This document shows positions 5,101 through 24,745 of a stretch of 30,627 bases of DNA, piece by piece. The number at the start of each line of letters is the position of its first letter. Position 1 is the first letter of the stretch. The DNA lies in contig WELB01000003.1 in assembly GCA_009602725.1 (NCBI GenBank), forward strand, positions 886,702 to 917,328, read 5' to 3'. The notes beneath the pieces were generated by a model that worked only from the letters and a program-made list of their open reading frames with translations, was not told the origin of the DNA and did no database searches. The position numbers were made by a program, and so were the translations under genes. This DNA comes from Spirogloea muscicola (Eukaryota > Streptophyta > Zygnematophyceae > Spirogloeales > Spirogloeaceae).

Positions 5101-5392
5101 GCAGCGGGCGCGGGGGCCATGGCTGCCGGCTGCCCACCGACTGCCCCAGCCCAGCGTGGTGCCAACACCTGGGTCGCCCCCTCAGGGGGGATCGAAAGGA
5201 AGTGGCTCTCCTGAAAAGCCAGCCCAGAAGCAATTGACGATCACGGAAGACTTCGCAGACTCGACCTGCGGGCTGCGGTTAATGGGTGCCGCAAGAGGTC
5301 TGTGTCTCTCACCCGTGGACGCTTGGCTGATAGGTTGATAGAAGCATCACTCACAACATGTCAAACACGTCAAAGCCTTTCCGAGTGCTTGC

Positions 5393-5437
5393 TTGAATTG
5401 GCCATGCTTTCAATTCATGCGCGCCGCGCGCCTTCCC
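5393..5437 (+). mobile_element. F2 3' hairpin end
   Basis: TTGAATTGGCCATGCTTTCAATTCA forms the F2 stem (TGAATTG pairing with CAATTCA). It is followed by TGCGCGCCGCGCGCCTT and a pyrimidine tail. It lies immediately upstream of the F3 copy at 5520, so the F3 copy appears joined to the F2 tail. Confidence 0.65.
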
Positions 5438-6812: not shown

Positions 6813-6847
<35 letters not shown>

Positions 6848-6861
6848 ACGCACTTACATCC
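6812..6861. repeat. (CT)n with N, flanked by a direct repeat
   Basis: TCTCTTCACGCACTTACATC occurs on both sides of the CT tract (about 6792-6811 and 6842-6861). An N lies at 6812. This may be a real short duplication or an assembly overlap left unresolved. Confidence 0.75.
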
Positions 6862-6959
6862 TCTTTCTCCCCCTGGCTTGTCTTGCTTGCCCTCCCTTTT
6901 CCCTTTTCTTTCTCGTACAATTCTATCCTATCTCTCGACCTGGGCTTGCCTTGCTTTCT

Positions 6960-8270
6960 CAGCCCTTCCCTCTCTCTCTGTCTCTCACTATCTCCCTCTC
7001 TCTGTGTCTCGCTATCTCTCTAACTCTCTGTCTCTCTGTCTCACTATCTCTCTATCTCACTATCTCTCTGTCTCTCTGTTTTTCTCTATCTCTCTGTCTC
7101 TCTGTCTCTCTGTCTCTCTGTCTCTCCGTCTCTCTGTCTCTCCGTCTCTCTGTCTCTCTGTCTCTCCGTCTCTGTCTCTCTCTGTCTCTCTGTCTCTCTG
7201 TCCCACTGTCTCTCTCTGTCTCACTGTCTCTCTGTCCCACTGTCTCACTGTCTCTCTGCCTCACTGCCTCACTGTCTCACTGTCTCTCTGCCTCACTGCC
7301 TCACTGTCTCTCTGTCTCTCTGTCTCACTGTCTCACCGTCTCACTGTCTCTCTGCCTCACTGTCTCTCTGTCTCTCTGTCTCACTATCTCTCTGTCTCAC
7401 TATCTCTCTGTCTCTCTGTTTTTCTCTATCTCTCTGTCTCTCTGTCTCTCTGTCTCTCTGTCTCTCCGTCTTTCTGTCTTTCTGTCTCTCTGTCTCTCTG
7501 TCTCTGTCTCTCTGTCTCTCTGTCTCTCTGTCTCTCTGTCTCTGTCTTTCTGTCTCTCTGTCTCTCTGTCTCACTGCCTCACTGTCTTTCTGTCTCACCG
7601 TCTCACTGTCTCTCTGTCTCTCTGTCTCACTGTCTCACCGTCTCACTGTCTCTCTGTCTCACCGTCTCTCTGTCTCACTGTCTCTCTGTCTCACTGTCTC
7701 ACTGTCTCTCTGTCTCTCTGTTTTACTGCCTCTCTGCCTCCCTGTCTCTCTGTCTCACTGTCTCTCTGTCTCTCTGTCTCACTGTCTCACTTTCTCACTG
7801 TCTCTCCGTCTCTCTGTCTCTCTGTCTCTTTGTCTCTCCGTCTCTCTGTCTCTCTGTCTCTGTCTCTCTGTCTCTCTGTCCCTTTGTCTCTCTGTCCCAC
7901 TGTCTCACTGTCTCACTGTCTCACTGTCTTTCTGCCTCACTGTCTCACTGTCTCACTGTCTCACTGTCTCTCTGTCTCTCTGTCTCTCTGTCTCACTGTC
8001 TCTCTGTCTCACTGCCTCATTGTCTTTCTGTCTCCGTCTCTCTGTCTCACTGTCTCTCCGTCTCTCTGTCTCACCGTCTCACTGTCTCTCTGCCTCACTG
8101 TCTCTCTGTCTCACTGTCTCACTGTCTCTCTGTCTCACTGTTTTACTGCCTCTCTGCCTCCCTGTCTCTCTGTCTCTCTGTCTCTCTGTCTCTCTGTCTC
8201 ACTGTCTCTCTGTCTCACTGTCTCACTGTCTCACTGTCTCTCTGTCTCTCTGTCGCTCTGTCTCTCTCAG
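6960..8270. repeat. 8-bp minisatellite, TCTCTGTC and variants
   Basis: About 1.3 kb is built from octamers TCTCTGTC, TCACTGTC, TCTCCGTC, TCACCGTC, TCACTGCC and TCACTATC. Longer-range order is visible. GTTTTTCTCTATCTC recurs 340 bp apart (about 7078 and 7418). A block around TTTTACTGCCTCTCTGCC recurs 420 bp apart (7721 and 8141). Because 8 is not a multiple of 3 and the units lack stops, very long Ser/Leu-rich frames are open throughout; these are not genes. Confidence 0.95.
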
Positions 8271-8518
8271 ACACACACACACACAGACAGACAGACACAG
8301 ACACAGACAAAGACACAGACACACAGACACAGACACAGACGCACAGACACACAGACACACACACAGACACAGACACAGACACAGACACACAGAGACACAG
8401 AGGCGCAGAGACACAGAGACACAGACAGACACACAGACAGACACACAGAGACACAGAGACACAGACAGACACACAGAGACACAGAGACACAGACACACAC
8501 AGACACACACACACACAC
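8271..8518. repeat. ACAGAC/ACAGAG/CA array
   Basis: The array directly abuts the minisatellite. Its AGACACAGAGACACAG units are roughly the reverse complement of the CTCTGTCT units upstream, so the two arrays could pair imperfectly. Confidence 0.9.
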
Positions 8519-9975
8519 CTGTAATAAACCCAGAACTGCTTTACTTCTGAAGGAGAAATTGTGAAGGAGTCACCTAGGTTGGTTGCTGACCTCGCTGTGT
8601 CCGTGTCCTATTTAACCGTGTCCTATTTAAATCCTCAATGACAATTTCTGCTACCCTAAAATATGATTAGGTCTTGTAGAAAGATTTACTGCAGCTCAAT
8701 ATATGCCTTTGTCTGAGAAACTTCATGAAGCATTGAGTCAAAGCTTCTCAGATGCACTCACCCTGTACCCCCGCCGCTCTCTCCCGACTTGTTACCCTCT
8801 CTCCTTCCAAAAATCCCCCCTCTTCTTCTGGTCCGTACTCCTACCATCCTCCTCCGTTCTTTCGAATTCACTATATTTGAGACACTTTCACTCGCAATGC
8901 CGACGTTTCTTGAGCATTCCTTACCCATAACAGTCTCTTCCTTCGTATATTGAAATCCCTCTCCCTACCCCCTGTGCCTGTAGGCAATGCATCAACCTTA
9001 CCTCCCCCTTTCGCGCAAACTTCTTCCATTTCCTTCGTCTTCTTCTCTCCTGTCGCCCAATGTGTCCCAGGGACAATAGCAAGGAGATATCACCAATTGT
9101 GGTCCTCTTTCCTTGCACGCCTAGACTTCTTTGCTAGACTGGTGCTAGACATTGTGTGCATTTTAAAAATCCCTTGGGCGCCTGGCAATTGCACCTGATG
9201 GAATGATGTGCCTGTGGATGCAGCATCTTGTGAAATTTGCTCACTATGGCTGCTTAGGCAATTACACGAGAATGTTAAAGTACATCATGTAGCGCAGCTT
9301 TCAGAAACAAATATCCGAAGCTGTTGCTGTTGAGCTCTTCCACATACAACCTTGTCATATCCTATCCGTTTGGATGTAGGCTTTTACGCAACGCAGCTCC
9401 CCAACGGCGGTAATGAGAGGGCCCTGATTGCCCAGCCTGACGGCTCCGCATCCCATTTATTGCCCTCGGAATTTCTCTGTATTGCACTCGGCTGACCTCT
9501 TCAGCCGCCCCTGAATATAAGCAGCCGCACTCTCTAACTGCACATTAGTCAAACTTTTAGCCCCGTTCGTTTTAGTCATCAAGCTCTGCAATCTACAAGT
9601 GCATGTCGACCACTACGGCAGCGCAAGTTGACAACTTCATAACACTGATATTCTTCTAGTCTCAATGGTTTTATTCATCAAGCTCCGCAATCTCCAAAAA
9701 ATCGCAAGTCGACCACTTCACAACAGTGACCACAATCAGGGCCGTTACATCCCACGTTATCCCCTTCATTTGTTCCGAAGTCTCCGCCAGAGCACCCACT
9801 ACATCCAGCTGCGTTACATGTGCAGAGGTAGCCACCCATCACTGCGGAACAGTCACATCCATGTTTTGCACAAGCTGGAGGTGGCGGCGGCGACGGCGAC
9901 GGCGTAATACAAGCTGCCAGAACATTGCGAATTTATGAGGTTCTGCTGCGGAGGACCATAGTAGTTGCTGTGCGG
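8515..9975 (-). repeat. Segmental duplicate D1 (3' part of the cysteine-rich gene and its flank)
   Basis: The segment aligns collinearly with 11705-13205. Landmarks are CTTCTGAAGGAG, GTCACCTAG.TTGGT, CATTGAGTCAAAGCTT, TAGCAAGGAGATATCAC, GACTGGTGCTAGACATTGTG, CCCACATACAACCTTGTC and the last exon of the gene. Both copies are preceded by a CT-then-CA microsatellite, which was probably part of the duplicated unit. About 8520-9660 lies beyond the gene's 3' end and shows no other gene. Confidence 0.85.
9670..9675 (-). promoter_or_regulatory. Poly(A) signal AATAAA
   Basis: In minus sense the stop TGA (9680-9678) is followed within 2 nt by AATAAA. The duplicate D2 has GAGTCA in its place, so the signal is lost there. 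Confidence 0.6.
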
Positions 9976-13460: not shown

Positions 13461-13670
13461 GCTTCTTTCCGAGCTGAGATTTATTCGGACTTGCTGCTGG
13501 TCACTCGTGGTTAGTAACCCTCCATCTCAAATAGTCTCGTGCATTGCTGTGTGGTTTGGGCTCTTTGGACCTTGTCCATTCTCTTTGAGGTGACCTTTCT
13601 CAGCCGTGCTCTCGCTGCAGCCTCTGGCTTTCGTCAAGGGATTGTTTCCCGGCAGCTAGTCTGTCGTAAT
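13461..13670 (+). mobile_element. Two further truncated F1 stubs
   Basis: 13470-13515 encodes FRAEIYSDLLLVTRG and a TAG. It is followed by a short UTR (TTTGGACCTTGTCCATTCTCTTTGAGG) with a degraded hairpin. At 13598 another stub starts mid-codon-block with CGTGCTCTCGCTGCAGCCTC. They are joined directly head-to-tail. Confidence 0.7.
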
Positions 13671-13739
13671 ACCCCACACATTGTGCCTCCAAGGCTGGGT
13701 CTGCGGTGGCCTGCGCCGCCCGGGCCAAGAAATAAAAAC

Positions 13740-14122
13740 ACAGACCTCCCGCGGGAAGACGAGTTCTTCCCGCTCGCCATAGACACCCAAGGTGCGTTGG
13801 GCGTACAGTGGCTCGAGCTGCTCAACCAGCTCTCGCGTCACGCCATCTCCCGCCGATGCCATGGAGAGCTGGTGGGTTTTCATGCTGGCTCGCTCGCGCA
13901 GGTGTACCGCATGCGCCTGTCCGTCTCGCTGCAGAGGTCCATGGCTCGCGCGCTGCATCTGCGTGCCGGTCGTGCCCAAGCTGCTGCCTCTGGCCCTGGC
14001 CAGGGGGAAAGCGCGCAGAGCGCATGAAATGAAAAGAGGCCAATTCAAGCCGATACAGTGTCCAGGGGACCCGCTACCAAGAGCCCAGTTTCTCTGACCT
14101 GCGGCTACGAAGCAGGGGTTAC
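13740..14122 (+). pseudogene. F1 endonuclease-domain C-terminus, split by an F2 hairpin
   Basis: Frame at 13760-14005 reads FPLAIDTQGALGVQWLELL, RMRLSVSLQRSMARAL and HLRAGRAQAAASG. This is the region after the RLE lysine in the other copies. The frame is broken by a 55-bp insertion at 14007-14061. After it, GTRYQEPSFSDLRL...SRGY and TGA (about 14120-14122) complete the tail, matching 24527-24597. Non-functional and 5'-truncated. Confidence 0.75.
14007..14061 (-). mobile_element. 55-bp F2 hairpin-only insertion
   Basis: The direct repeat CCAGGGG flanks it (14000-14006 and 14062-14068). In minus sense it reads GGCTTGAATTGGCCTC...CATTTCATGCGC followed by GCGCGC and a pyrimidine end, the F2 3' terminus and nothing else. 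The paralogous tail at about 24530 has a single CCAGGGGACCC, which is the empty site. Confidence 0.8.
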
Positions 14123-14410
14123 TGAGTGTTTCGTAGCTCCTTATTCCCATATGTGCTAGCTTCAGCGCTTCCCCTTGGCCCATTCGAACTTCGTTGTCAT
14201 GCCCGGGCCAGCGTCGTCGTAACAGCTAGAGGGCGGTTGGGCGGAACCGAGCAGGGCTAACCCTGGTCGAGTATCTCAGGTAGGAAGGTGGTATAGGGAA
14301 CCTCAGCGGGGGTAACCCATGGGGTGACTCGCTGGGTAGGGTGCAACCGGTAGGGCGGGCCGGAGAGCCCCGGGGCGCCGGAGCGAAGTCCCTGTACCTA
14401 CTGCCTTGAC
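14123..14410. other. F1-like UTR remnant and GC-rich unassigned DNA
   Basis: After the stop, the start of the F1 UTR (TTTCGTAGCTCC) is visible. It is followed by about 200 bp of GC-rich sequence (14220-14400) without a hairpin or similarity to other parts of the window. Confidence 0.35.
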
Positions 14411-14644: not shown

Positions 14645-14868
14645 CGCTCTAAGTCAGGCCTCCGGCATTCGTGGCGGCGCTCCAGCTCCCCAAGTTAGCT
14701 TGTCAGATTTGTTTGTGCTCACCCGTGGGTACTAATGTCATCTTAGGTACCTTAGATTAGGTCTCCGTGTTATGTAGCCTTGTTTAGTCTGCACTCGACT
14801 CTGCCTGAACAATGTATTGGCTTGAATTGGCCTCCCTTTCAATTCATGCGCCCCGCGCGCCTTCTCTC
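14645..14868 (+). mobile_element. F2 tail, nearly identical to the 3' part of 19105-19650
   Basis: The coding stub QASGIRGGAPAPQ...SLSDLFVLTRGY ends in TAA at about 14732-14734. The UTR (GTACCTTAGATTAGGTCTCC..., CTGAACAATGTATTGG) ends in the F2 hairpin TTGAATTGGCCTCCCTTTCAATTCA with its GCGCGCC tail. It is fused to the CACTTCT end of the preceding F1 tail. Confidence 0.85.
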
Positions 14869-15326: not shown

Positions 15327-15690
15327 TTTGAAGCTCCTCACTCGTGATTATTGAGTGGTTCATCCTACACCAGTTCTGAGATAGCGCTTCTGGCCCCCTC
15401 GTAGTTTGGCCCCTTCGAACTTTGTCAAGTCTTTGAAGGCTGGCTTCTCACAGCCCTTGCCCCCATTGGGAGAGCCACTTTCTGACAGCCCTTGCCCCCA
15501 TTGGGAGAGCCACTTTCTTTCCCAGCCCCTACCTTCTATGAGAGAGCACTTACTTTCTTTGCCGGCCTCCCTTGTTGGACCTTGTAAAATCTTATTGTCC
15601 TGGCCCTTCCCAGCCACCGCCATCTCCTGGACGCGTCTTTCTTCTTTGCCAGCCCCTACCTTCCTTGGGAGAGCACTTCAATTCTTCACC
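15327..15690 (+). mobile_element. F1 stub followed by a cluster of repeated 3' termini
   Basis: LKLLTRDY and a TGA (about 15352-15354) join directly to the tail of the previous F1 end. After the UTR the hairpin (15438-15456) is followed by a 35-bp tandem duplication of its 3' half, CAGCCCTTGCCCCCATTGGG plus AGAGCCACTTTCTGA, at about 15451-15520. Two more half-ends follow, CAGCCCCTACCTTC.(T)ATGAGAGAGCACTT (about 15520) and CAGCCCCTACCTTCCTTGGG (about 15650). Confidence 0.75.
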
Positions 15691-18769: not shown

Positions 18770-20158
18770 GCTACCCTCTGAGGGAGGGTGGCCTCCCTCA
18801 GCCGCTCTTCGGTTACTGAGGCCCACTTGCTGACGTTTCCACTTGCTGACGTCTGAGCGATTAGTATCCTGCTTTTTGCGCCAGCCAGCCCTTTCCGCCC
18901 TTGTCCATTCCTTTGTGCTGGCCTCTCACAGCCACTGCTGTCAATCTGGAAGAGCTGTTCTTCTTGTATGGTTGTACTGCTGACCCGGCTGACAGGCATT
19001 GTTGACTAGCCTCATTACTGCCTCCAGATGCGCCGTTGCTGTTGTTGCTGCACAAAATCGCCATCCCCATGGACTACAGCAGGTACTGCTTTCTAGGTTA
19101 CGAAGAGAGAGAGAGAAGGCGCGCGGGGCTCATGAATTGAAAGGGAGGCCAATTCAAGCCAATACATTGTTCAGGCAGAGTCGAGTGCAGACTAAACAAG
19201 GCTACATAATACGGAGACCTAATCTAAGGTACCTAAGATGACATTAGTACCCACGGGTGAGCACAAACAAATCTGACAAGCTAACTTGGGGAGCTGGAGC
19301 GCCGCCACGAAAGCCGGAGGCCTGACTTAGAGCGCGCCCTGCACGTTGATGAAGAGCCAATGCTTGCGAGCGCTGCAAACTAAGCGAGAGCCGCATGCTA
19401 TAATATGCAACTAAGGCCTGCGGAATGCTGGAGTGGCCCAAGCTGCCCCCCCGACTTCGACGACGCGCATCAACCAGCCGGGCCAGATGCTGGATCAGGG
19501 AGGACCATTTCACGCCGTAGCCTCCATAGATATCCATGGCACACGGGTAAAGATGGTCCCCTCGAGGATGATCATGGTAGTGCCGCTCCTTCTTGCGCTC
19601 CGCGCTGGACGTGGCCCAGCCAGACACGGTTGACGTTGGTGCGCCAGCCAACGAAATGGTGGTGGACGGAGCATGCCCAAAAGCATGGACAGAGTTGCGC
19701 AAACAGCACAAACGGAACTAAGCAACTTTATATCAAGTGTGGAATAATCATCACAAAGCGTGCTGATCCGGAAGCCCAAACACAGTAATGCGCGGCTAAG
19801 AGTAAGTAGCATCCACGTGAGTGTGCAGAAATGTCAGAAAGGCTAACAGTGGCCCAACGTATACGACAACAATGAGTTTCAAGGTGTTGGGGGCTATTAA
19901 ATGATGCTCTTCTCAAGGTCTCAGCTCCCATGCGGCGGGTCTGCTGGCCCTTCGCCTGCCTGCTTTTCTGGCAGGCAATGCACCTCGGAGGTCATTCCCC
20001 TTGTTAGAGGCTCTAGAAAAAAACAGATACTACTGATTAGCTCGCATGTTTAAACTGATGCTTCCAACAATCGAAGCACGATTGAAAGCAGCTGCGCACA
20101 TCGTCTGCCTTCTGAAAGGCTGACAGTCTCAGCTCCAAACTCAACGTGCTGGACGTCG
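18770..20158 (+). repeat. Segmental repeat A' (interrupted copy)
   Basis: Second copy of 1548-2225. A perfect 10-bp hairpin, CTGAGGGAGG-GTGG-CCTCCCTCAG, is at 18778-18801 (the A copy has a decayed version). An F1 hairpin end (18916-18935) and the 546-bp F2 insertion (19105-19650) lie inside it. CCACTTGCTGACGT is tandemly repeated at about 18823-18852. Confidence 0.8.
19105..19650 (-). mobile_element. F2 retrotransposon insertion, 546 bp, with ACGAA duplications
   Basis: ACGAA lies at 19100-19104 and 19651-19655; repeat A has the uninterrupted site. In minus sense the insertion starts inside the coding region (WATSSAERKKERHYHDHP) and runs through MDIYGGYGVKWSSLIQHLARL to SLSDLFVLTRGY, with TAA at about 19246-19244. 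A 3' UTR of about 140 bp follows, ending in the F2 hairpin (TTGAATTGGCCTCCC...), GCGCGCC and (CT)n. It defines the F2 3' end precisely. The coding part is open through its whole length but 5'-truncated. Confidence 0.88.
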
Positions 20159-23083: not shown

Positions 23084-24419
23084 TGTCATGCGAGTAGGCG
23101 TCGGTGCGAAATGACGTCGATAGGTCTAGACGATAACAAACCTTGGCCAACTGTCAGGAAGAACAGTCTGATAAAGGTCAACAGTTGCTGTCAGTTGCCA
23201 AAGATCACAACAGATAAACAACTCAAGAACGTGTGAAAATTGACTATGTAGTATATGAAGGAAAGCGCGACAGTGCCCAGTAACCGGTATCCAGTATCTG
23301 AAGTCTTAAGGTCTTTCTATCTACTCGTATTGAGTCTCAAGGGGTCCCTATCTACTCGTATTGGGTAACCACCCCAAAGGATGGTCGCTATCTACTCGAG
23401 CAATTGTTCTCGGGCAAGCCCGCACCTTTTCTGTATTCGTGATTATAACAAGCAATGCAGCCAATGGATGCACGCAAGCAATCGATTCGAAACAGGCACT
23501 CAAACAATGAGCGCGACTCTTCAGATGTGAATACAGGCAAGTGCAGCACAATGTAAAGGCTGCTTACCATGCAGATAGAACGACTTCTCGCTGTCGCAGC
23601 GGGTCCGCACGCAAGGCTCGCTATGCGCGCACGCCGTATATGCCGGGCTCTGCCCTCTCGCGGACGCAGGCGCGAGTAGACCCAGGCTTGATCGGCGCAG
23701 GCGCGGTGGGCGCAGGCGCGGCAGGAGGGTGAGTATTACCAAGCGGACTGCCTGGCCTAGAGCGCGCGCCCCGACATGGGCTCGACGCGGTGAAACCCTA
23801 GCGCTACCTGATAGGCCAGATGCGGGCCGTTGGCTACGCTGGTTGGCTAAGCTGGATTGTCGGCCTTCGTGGACCCGCTTCCGACCCTGGAGTCGTCTTG
23901 ACCGTAGATGAACATATCCAATGGTCCGCTGCACGGTCGCCCCGCCACCGCTTCGATAGCGCCCACCTTGACGGTCTTGTTGGTGGTTGAGGTACCTGTA
24001 GATGGGCATTCCTCGTCGCGCCTTGAACGGTCTTCGGCTGGTTGGCGTCGCGCGTGGGCTTGGGCCCTTATAGTCACGCCGTTGTTGTGGATGTCCGCGT
24101 TTGATGAGCGGTTGATGTTGTTGTTGGTGTTGTCCGCATCGGAAGAGCGGTCGATATCGTTGTTGTCGCCGAAAGAGAAAGTCGGTGTCGCCGAGAGAAA
24201 GTGTCAGAGGTGGGTGGAACCTCCATTGTCAGCGTGAATCACACACAAAAGTGTCTGACCCAGCCTAGGAGCCACATAGGGAGAAAAGTGGTCCTTCATC
24301 CTCAGCGTGAATCACCCACCGAAGTGAATGAGTCAGCCTAGTAAGGCCACGTGTGAAGCCCAGTCAGCGGTCCTAGTCAGATCGACACAAATAGGCAGTC
24401 GACAGGATACGGCACGACA
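23084..24419 (-). mobile_element. Solo-LTR-like element R, copy 2 (1,336 bp)
   Basis: Ends are TGTCATGC (23084-23091) and GCACGACA (24412-24419). CCCC flanks both sides (23080-23083, 24420-24423). It is the inverse of 15749-17671 and lacks that copy's MITE and poly(A). Excision joins GAGCTGGCTTTGCTGGCCCC to CTTTTTCTATGGGCGAACAC, restoring an F1 3' end like that at 18163-18193. CTATCTACTCG occurs three times at 23316-23400. No gag, pol or integrase is seen. Confidence 0.8.
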
Positions 24420-24745
24420 CCCCCTTTTTCTATGGGCGAACACTTTCTTTCTAGCATTCCTCTCCCCTTGAGGCTTCCTTCGCAAGCTGCACCTTCGTGC
24501 CGGCCGGGCTCTTGCTGCTGCCTCTGGCTCTGGCCAGGGGACCCACTTTCAGGACCCTAGCCTCTCTGATTTGCGGCTGCTTAGCAGGGGTTACTGAGTG
24601 ATTTGTAGCTGCTTTCTTTCTTTGTGTGCTTTGTTTTCTTAGCGCTTCCTCTGGGCCCCCTTCTCGTACTTTGTTCATTCTTTCTTGGGCTGGCTTTTCC
24701 AGCCCCTATCCTCAATGGGCGAGCCCTTCTTTCTCCGCAAACCGG
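24420..24745 (+). mobile_element. F1 3' half-end joined to another F1 tail
   Basis: The end of the interrupted module (TATGGGCGAACACTTTCTTTC, to about 24453) is followed by a stub with CCTTCGTGCCGGCCGGGCTC, AAASGSGQGTHFQDPSLSDL, then LLSRGY and TGA (about 24595-24597). Its UTR and hairpin (24687-24705) match 1-125 in inverse orientation. The single CCAGGGGACCC at about 24535 is the empty-site reference for 14007-14061. Confidence 0.8.

What the first reader, a model, noticed from the sequence alone, without database searches (positions are those of the whole stretch)
14000..14068. A second, unrelated hairpin moved alone: 55-bp F2 end with CCAGGGG duplications
Seen: a 55-bp F2 terminus in reverse orientation splits an F1 coding tail between two CCAGGGG copies; 24530 shows the uninterrupted sequence. 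Two different families both producing hairpin-only insertions suggests a shared property of their reverse transcription (very early dissociation), or a distinct class of micro-retroposons that use the hairpins as stand-alone substrates.
Basis: partly seen in the sequence, partly recalled or inferred. Interest (0 to 1): 0.75.

Follow-up and report, generated by a model that had tools for sequence, protein, structure and literature searches.

The report
Tiny truncated retrotransposon copy in alga
The 55-base piece is the very end of a common retrotransposon, copied into another retrotransposon and cut short early; such stubs of many different lengths are common in this algal genome, so it is ordinary in kind though unusually short.

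Summary
Observation confirmed. Window 14007-14061 (55 bp, minus strand) is the 3' end of an abundant LINE-like family (F2), inserted in the coding tail of another LINE (F1) between two CCAGGGG copies; by my reading, 24 other F1 places are uninterrupted there.

Copied lengths run continuously from about 20 nt upward; the rate of ending is near constant (0.6-0.8% per nt from 45 to 120 nt) and no position shows a pile-up. Copies with duplications of 7-11 nt occur at 28, 29, 34, 34, 35, 37, 40, 48, 50, 56, 57, 63 nt among others; the shortest lack the upstream predicted hairpin. Tail type B behaves likewise, type A less clearly.

Best explanation: target-primed reverse transcription from the LINE tail that stops very early (extreme 5' truncation). 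A discrete "hairpin micro-retroposon" is not supported, although short copies resemble each other slightly more than chance (P 0.02-0.03) and sample 1 alone had a broad excess at 45-75 nt. Hairpin pairing has no covariation support. The unusual part is quantitative: a half-length near 98 nt over the first 200 nt.

The parts
14000..14006 (.). left copy of target-site duplication CCAGGGG
   Evidence: single copy in empty F1 sites
14007..14061 (-). 55-bp 5'-truncated copy: the 3' end of the F2 LINE tail
   Evidence: 84-86% identical to F2 ends at 14809-14864 and 19115-19170
14062..14068 (.). right copy of target-site duplication CCAGGGG
   Evidence: also found by the automated TSD search (row 126)
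13901..14125 (+). host: 3' coding end of an F1-type LINE, split by the insertion; the open frame (13518-14027) now stops inside the insert; the F1 stop codon as read is at 14123-14125
24480..24614 (+). related F1 copy with the uninterrupted site
   Evidence: alignment to window 24400-24700
14645..14868 (+). longer copy of the F2 3' end, 99% complementary to 19111-19334
   Evidence: (I1)
19111..19334 (-). longer copy of the F2 3' end; the open frame 19244-19717 ends in ...SDLFVLTRGY just before the tail
5391..5435 (+). another strongly shortened F2-type tail; no TSD found
   Evidence: extension of about 42 nt (row 125)

Best explanation
The 55-bp piece is an extremely 5'-truncated copy of the F2 LINE. 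Proposed steps: F2 RNA with its 3' tail was primed on a nicked target in the F1 DNA (target-primed reverse transcription); cDNA synthesis covered only about 55 nt from the 3' end; the unfinished cDNA end was joined to the other target strand by annealing or repair; the staggered cut gave the 7-bp duplication. Shown: F2 3' end, duplication, empty site, continuous length spectrum, the same in another tail (B). Inferred: priming, loss of the enzyme or take-over by repair, and the annealing type of joining.
For: Empty site and TSD. Length test on 160 F2 tails (the 100 places listed, and 60 of 125 places): pooled rate of ending 0.25% (15-30 nt), 0.35% (30-45), then 0.73, 0.64, 0.60, 0.76, 0.63% per nt in 15-nt bins to 120 nt; 40 ended and 19 were censored before 75 nt; largest pile-up in 1/3/5-nt windows 3/6/8 of 60 ends, P 0.94/0.63/0.62 against a smoothed resampling (sd 12 nt); exponential half-length about 98 nt for 25-205 nt. 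TSDs of >=9 nt in 9 of 62 tails with extension <=80 nt against 9 of 1240 swapped-flank controls; in all, 18 of 160 against 10 of 1600; in an earlier overlapping set 12 of 130 against 4 of 650. Type B tail: extension below 60 nt in 32 of 87, TSDs >=9 nt in 11 of 87 against 3 of 435 controls, 5 of them in copies below 60 nt; type A: 9 of 49 below 60 nt, TSDs >=9 nt in 6 of 49 against 1 of 245, none of these below 60 nt. 13 of 30 short copies have a 44-nt tail identical to that of a long copy. PMC4245944 (passages): zebrafish ZfL2-1 in DT40 cells makes 5-bp TSDs, 2 of 33 inserts full length, joined through microhomology or extra nucleotides.
Against: The decline is not strictly memoryless: lower below 45 nt; higher at 135-150 nt in sample 1 (11 of 38 at risk) but not in sample 2 (0 of 15); in sample 1 none of the 9 that passed 300 nt ended before 500 nt. 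Sample 1 alone has 21 of 100 ends at 45-75 nt; sample 2 has 5 of 60. Short copies cluster slightly with each other (P 0.02-0.03). At >=7 nt the TSD control rate is 6.7%, so single cases of 7 nt are not proof. No transcript or enzyme data; no F2 enzyme was characterised.
Confidence: 0.86

Rival explanations
1. A discrete short RNA (SINE-like micro-retroposon) consisting of the hairpin tail is made and mobilised by the LINE enzyme in trans.
For: Many tail-only copies; sample 1 has a broad excess of ends at 45-75 nt (21 of 100); short copies resemble each other slightly more than expected (P 0.02-0.03).
Against: No pile-up at any position; sample 2 lacks the excess (5 of 60); TSD-flanked copies of 28-40 nt lack the upstream hairpin; anchor variants A, C and T occur among short as well as long copies.
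Confidence: 0.06
2. The F2 RNA is degraded down to an enzyme-protected 3' tail before reverse transcription, so truncation comes from the template and not from early stop.
For: Lower ending rate in the last 45 nt (0.25-0.35% against 0.6-0.8% per nt) would fit a protected 3' end.
Against: The low rate near the anchor may be an effect of how tails were found; the decline goes on far beyond a plausible footprint.
Confidence: 0.07
3. The two CCAGGGG copies are coincidental and the 55 bp belong to this F1 lineage.
For: None found.
Against: 24 F1 places lack it; its sequence is an F2 end present thousands of times.
Confidence: 0.01

Closest known systems
5'-truncated LINE copies with short TSDs (L2-clade ZfL2-1 of zebrafish, annealing pathway; PMC4245944, passages seen)
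   Same: 3'-anchored copies, mostly truncated, short duplications
   Different: Here 40 of 160 sampled tails (19 more unresolved) end before 75 nt; PMC3747384 (passages seen) gives 100-1,000 bp as the range of truncated LINE members
Stringent-type LINEs with a needed 3' tail (UnaL2, SART1, and algal SINE/LINE pairs such as SINEX with RandI or L1-1_CR; PMC3747384, passages seen; R2 recalled)
   Same: A 3' tail shared by several element bodies, by analogy the landing site of the enzyme
   Different: Tail ends in pyrimidine-rich CTTCTC; need for the tail not tested; clade not assigned
SINEs with LINE-derived tails (PMC3747384, passages seen)
   Same: Mobile unit that shares only the tail with a LINE
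   Different: No separate body and no fixed length found; a promoter was not looked for

Membership tests
5'-truncated LINE (TPRT) copy | 3' end fixed, 5' end variable | tested here: met
5'-truncated LINE (TPRT) copy | target-site duplication flush with both ends | tested here: met
   window TSD; excess of TSDs over swapped flanks in the samples
5'-truncated LINE (TPRT) copy | empty site known | tested here: met
5'-truncated LINE (TPRT) copy | parent element encodes reverse transcriptase | tested here: inconclusive
   Pfam gave no match above cut-off for seven window ORF pieces; naming it a LINE rests on the recalled look of the C-terminal proteins and on truncation with TSDs
SINE / discrete micro-retroposon | discrete length or fixed 5' end | tested here: not met
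SINE / discrete micro-retroposon | own lineage distinct from LINE copies | tested here: inconclusive
   13 of 30 identical to long copies, but P 0.02-0.03 for clustering
SINE / discrete micro-retroposon | own transcript and promoter | not tested
   no RNA data; no promoter search made
stringent-type LINE tail | conserved RNA hairpin at the 3' end | tested here: inconclusive
   single sequences fold into small hairpins, no better than shuffles for two of four; no compensatory change in 15 sequences

The most novel reading that the evidence does not exclude
The last ~45-70 nt of several LINE tails act as a discrete, enzyme-protected RNA that is itself a substrate for insertion, superposed on ordinary truncation, so that part of the stubs are micro-retroposons of a kind not described.
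Probability: 0.07. Interest if true: 0.7.

Novelty: new member of a known kind. Interest (0 to 1): 0.33.

Why it matters
It replaces a tempting special mechanism by a measured one. With thousands of short inserts in one genome, the rate at which LINE copying ends per nucleotide can be read directly, and ultra-short copies (28-70 bp), easily missed by repeat annotation (inference), can scatter tail sequences and short duplications widely.

Tried and rejected
A sharp 55-nt peak: sample 1 looked enriched at 45-75 nt (21 of 100), sample 2 did not confirm it (5 of 60). Chance duplication: rejected by empty sites. A site hotspot in F1: L002 carries a type B tail within a few bases of the same F1 site, L004 an F2 tail at the homologous place of a diverged LINE, L003 other tails about 20 bp further on; these came from a query holding both site and insert, so the search was biased and I make no hotspot claim; one more place (C81:242909-243076, 73% over the whole query) was not fetched. 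Hairpin conservation: no compensatory changes; the downstream hairpin lies inside the search pattern, so its invariance says nothing. Pfam on seven window ORF pieces gave nothing above cut-off. Organism: 68 matches, exon by exon, to the chlorophyll a/b-binding family point to a photosynthetic eukaryote; the species was not identified. Literature: seven paper searches ran (and one search found nothing); no title or abstract start that they listed names LINE copies of 25-70 bp as a class. PMC6407172 (passages) only says that its human L1 method detects inserts down to 150 bp.

Rows dropped or doubtful: 33 of 163 raw anchors were set aside as not tail-like. In one search, copies whose body seemed to go on past the break (score 15 or more; highest null scores 14.5 and 13.0) and without a TSD of 6 or more were censored. 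L125 and L148, whose upstream parts match chiefly each other, were kept as ended at 50 and 52 nt. In some searches, 94 of 160 tails were used (30 short, 64 long; repeats of the same 130 nt, doubtful and intermediate lengths left out). Two pairs in sample 2 (L121/L166, L118/L141) look like duplicates and were both kept.

Full report
What is there. Window 14007-14061 (55 bp) reads, on the minus strand, as the 3' end of the F2 family; CCAGGGG flanks it at 14000-14006 and 14062-14068. F2 ends elsewhere in the window match it at 81-86%. The host is the 3' coding end of an F1-type LINE; its open frame (13518-14027) now stops inside the insert, and the F1 stop codon lies at 14123-14125. In the genome (153 Mb, 471 contigs) I read from the table 24 F1 places where the two flanks abut without the insert; of seven further loci aligned, L003 and L005-L008 show the single site, and so does the window copy near 24531.

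What the 55 bp are. The core pattern of the F2 tail (<=1 mismatch) has 3847 places against 2 for the reversed control, and a 3'-proximal pattern 3816 against 0. Upstream of the shared tail lie several different bodies (here called F2a, F2b, F2c). The window copy at 19111-19717 ends in a protein ...LTRGY just before the tail; that this is a LINE C-terminus is recalled, and Pfam gave no call. The tails run into pyrimidine-rich DNA behind CCTTCTC.

I measured the copied length at the 100 places listed for the 3'-proximal pattern (61 on contig C1, 39 on C2) and in a second sample of 60 of the 125 places with G or T at the variable anchor base. Pooled with censoring, the rate of ending per nucleotide was 0.25% at 15-30 nt, 0.35% at 30-45, then 0.73, 0.64, 0.60, 0.76, 0.63% to 120 nt, 0.95% at 120-135, 1.38% at 135-150 and 0.62% at 150-200. 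The two samples differ bin by bin: 45-75 nt has 21 of 100 ends in sample 1 and 5 of 60 in sample 2; 135-150 nt has 11 of 38 at risk in sample 1 and 0 of 15 in sample 2; of the 9 in sample 1 that passed 300 nt none ended before 500. No single nucleotide holds more than 3 of the 60 ends between 20 and 110 nt, which a smoothed resampling gives easily (P 0.94; 3- and 5-nt windows P 0.63 and 0.62). The fitted half-length over 25-205 nt is about 98 nt. This is a smooth decline and not a peak at 55.

Are the short ones real insertions? Among 62 tails with extension of 80 nt or less, duplications of 9 nt or more were found in 9, against 9 of 1240 with swapped downstream flanks; of 7 or more in 13 of 62 against 83 of 1240. 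Copied lengths up to 80 nt with TSDs of 7 or more: 28, 29, 34, 34, 35, 37, 40, 48, 50, 51, 56, 57, 63, 76, 78 nt; several of these TSDs are TC-rich and therefore less certain (51 nt is a pure TC repeat), while CGGAATAGCT (28), CTCTTGCAAT (34), TCTAGTAGAAG (34), CTTCCAGG (48) and CCCTTCGCC (56) are not simple. Lengths count from the end of the 17-nt anchor; a few bases are to be added, so the window's 55-bp copy corresponds to 52 (row 126). The shortest lack the GGCT..GGCC hairpin.

Is it shared by other tails? In held loci (326 kb with overlaps) I found 49 type A and 89 type B tails, not similar to F2; A and B share a GGGCTGGC..CAGCC stretch and may be related to each other. Extension was below 60 nt in 9 of 49 and in 32 of 87 distinct ones. 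TSDs of 9 nt or more occurred in 6 of 49 and 11 of 87, against 1 of 245 and 3 of 435 controls; below 60 nt they occurred in none of the 9 A and in 5 of the 32 B copies. So the effect is clear in B and only suggestive in A. These loci were fetched because they hold F2 tails or F1 sites and are not a random sample.

A separate lineage of stubs? Of 30 clear short copies, 13 have a 44-nt tail identical to that of a long copy; the best match was equally good to long and short in 20, better to long in 5, better to short in 5. Against this, nearest neighbours of short copies are short in 0.48, against 0.31, 0.32 and 0.34 in label shuffles (P 0.023, 0.024, 0.030 with finer strata). This is weak and may reflect unequal truncation among subfamilies, but it is why the micro-retroposon reading keeps a small probability.

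Mechanism and comparison. Target-primed reverse transcription from the 3' tail, ended very early and completed by joining to the other strand, explains the fixed 3' end, free 5' end and short TSD. PMC4245944 (passages) reports that ZfL2-1 inserts in DT40 cells have 5-bp TSDs, are full length in 2 of 33 cases and are joined through microhomology or extra nucleotides. PMC3747384 (passages) gives 100-1,000 bp as the length range of truncated LINE members and describes stringent 3'-tail recognition, including algal LINE/SINE pairs. The present copies are shorter than that range; this is a difference of degree.

Limits. The species and LINE clade are not known; 68 matches to the chlorophyll-binding family point to a photosynthetic eukaryote. 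Only 160 of about 3800 F2 tails were measured. Folding suggests small hairpins (z-scores -1.65, 0.33, 0.01 and, for the insert, -1.56), but 15 diverse tails show no compensatory change.

Noticed in passing
L002, L003, L004, each about 1400-1800: Other tail insertions lie in or within about 20 bp of the same F1-type site (a type B tail in L002, a 257-nt F2 copy in L004, two tails in L003); possible insertion hotspot, but the search was biased towards it.
   Followed up: partly
C1:161857-161930 (L009), C1:575459-575526 (L023), window 15481-15516 (L001): Tails inserted directly behind other tails, giving tandem stubs; the pyrimidine-rich end of one tail may serve as target for the next.
   Followed up: no
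samples: Many target-site duplications begin with pyrimidines (TCTT, CTCT, CTTC), as if the CTTCTC tail end anneals to a GA-rich primer strand; not tested against background.
   Followed up: no
135-150 nt from the anchor end, sample 1: A second rise in the ending rate in sample 1 (11 of 38 at risk), absent in sample 2 (0 of 15), close to where the F2a stop codon seems to lie (about 127 nt, my count).
   Followed up: no
window 6813-8554: Long tandem array of 8-bp register (153 overlapping register matches in family D1), with a second array from 8228 (family D11).
   Followed up: no
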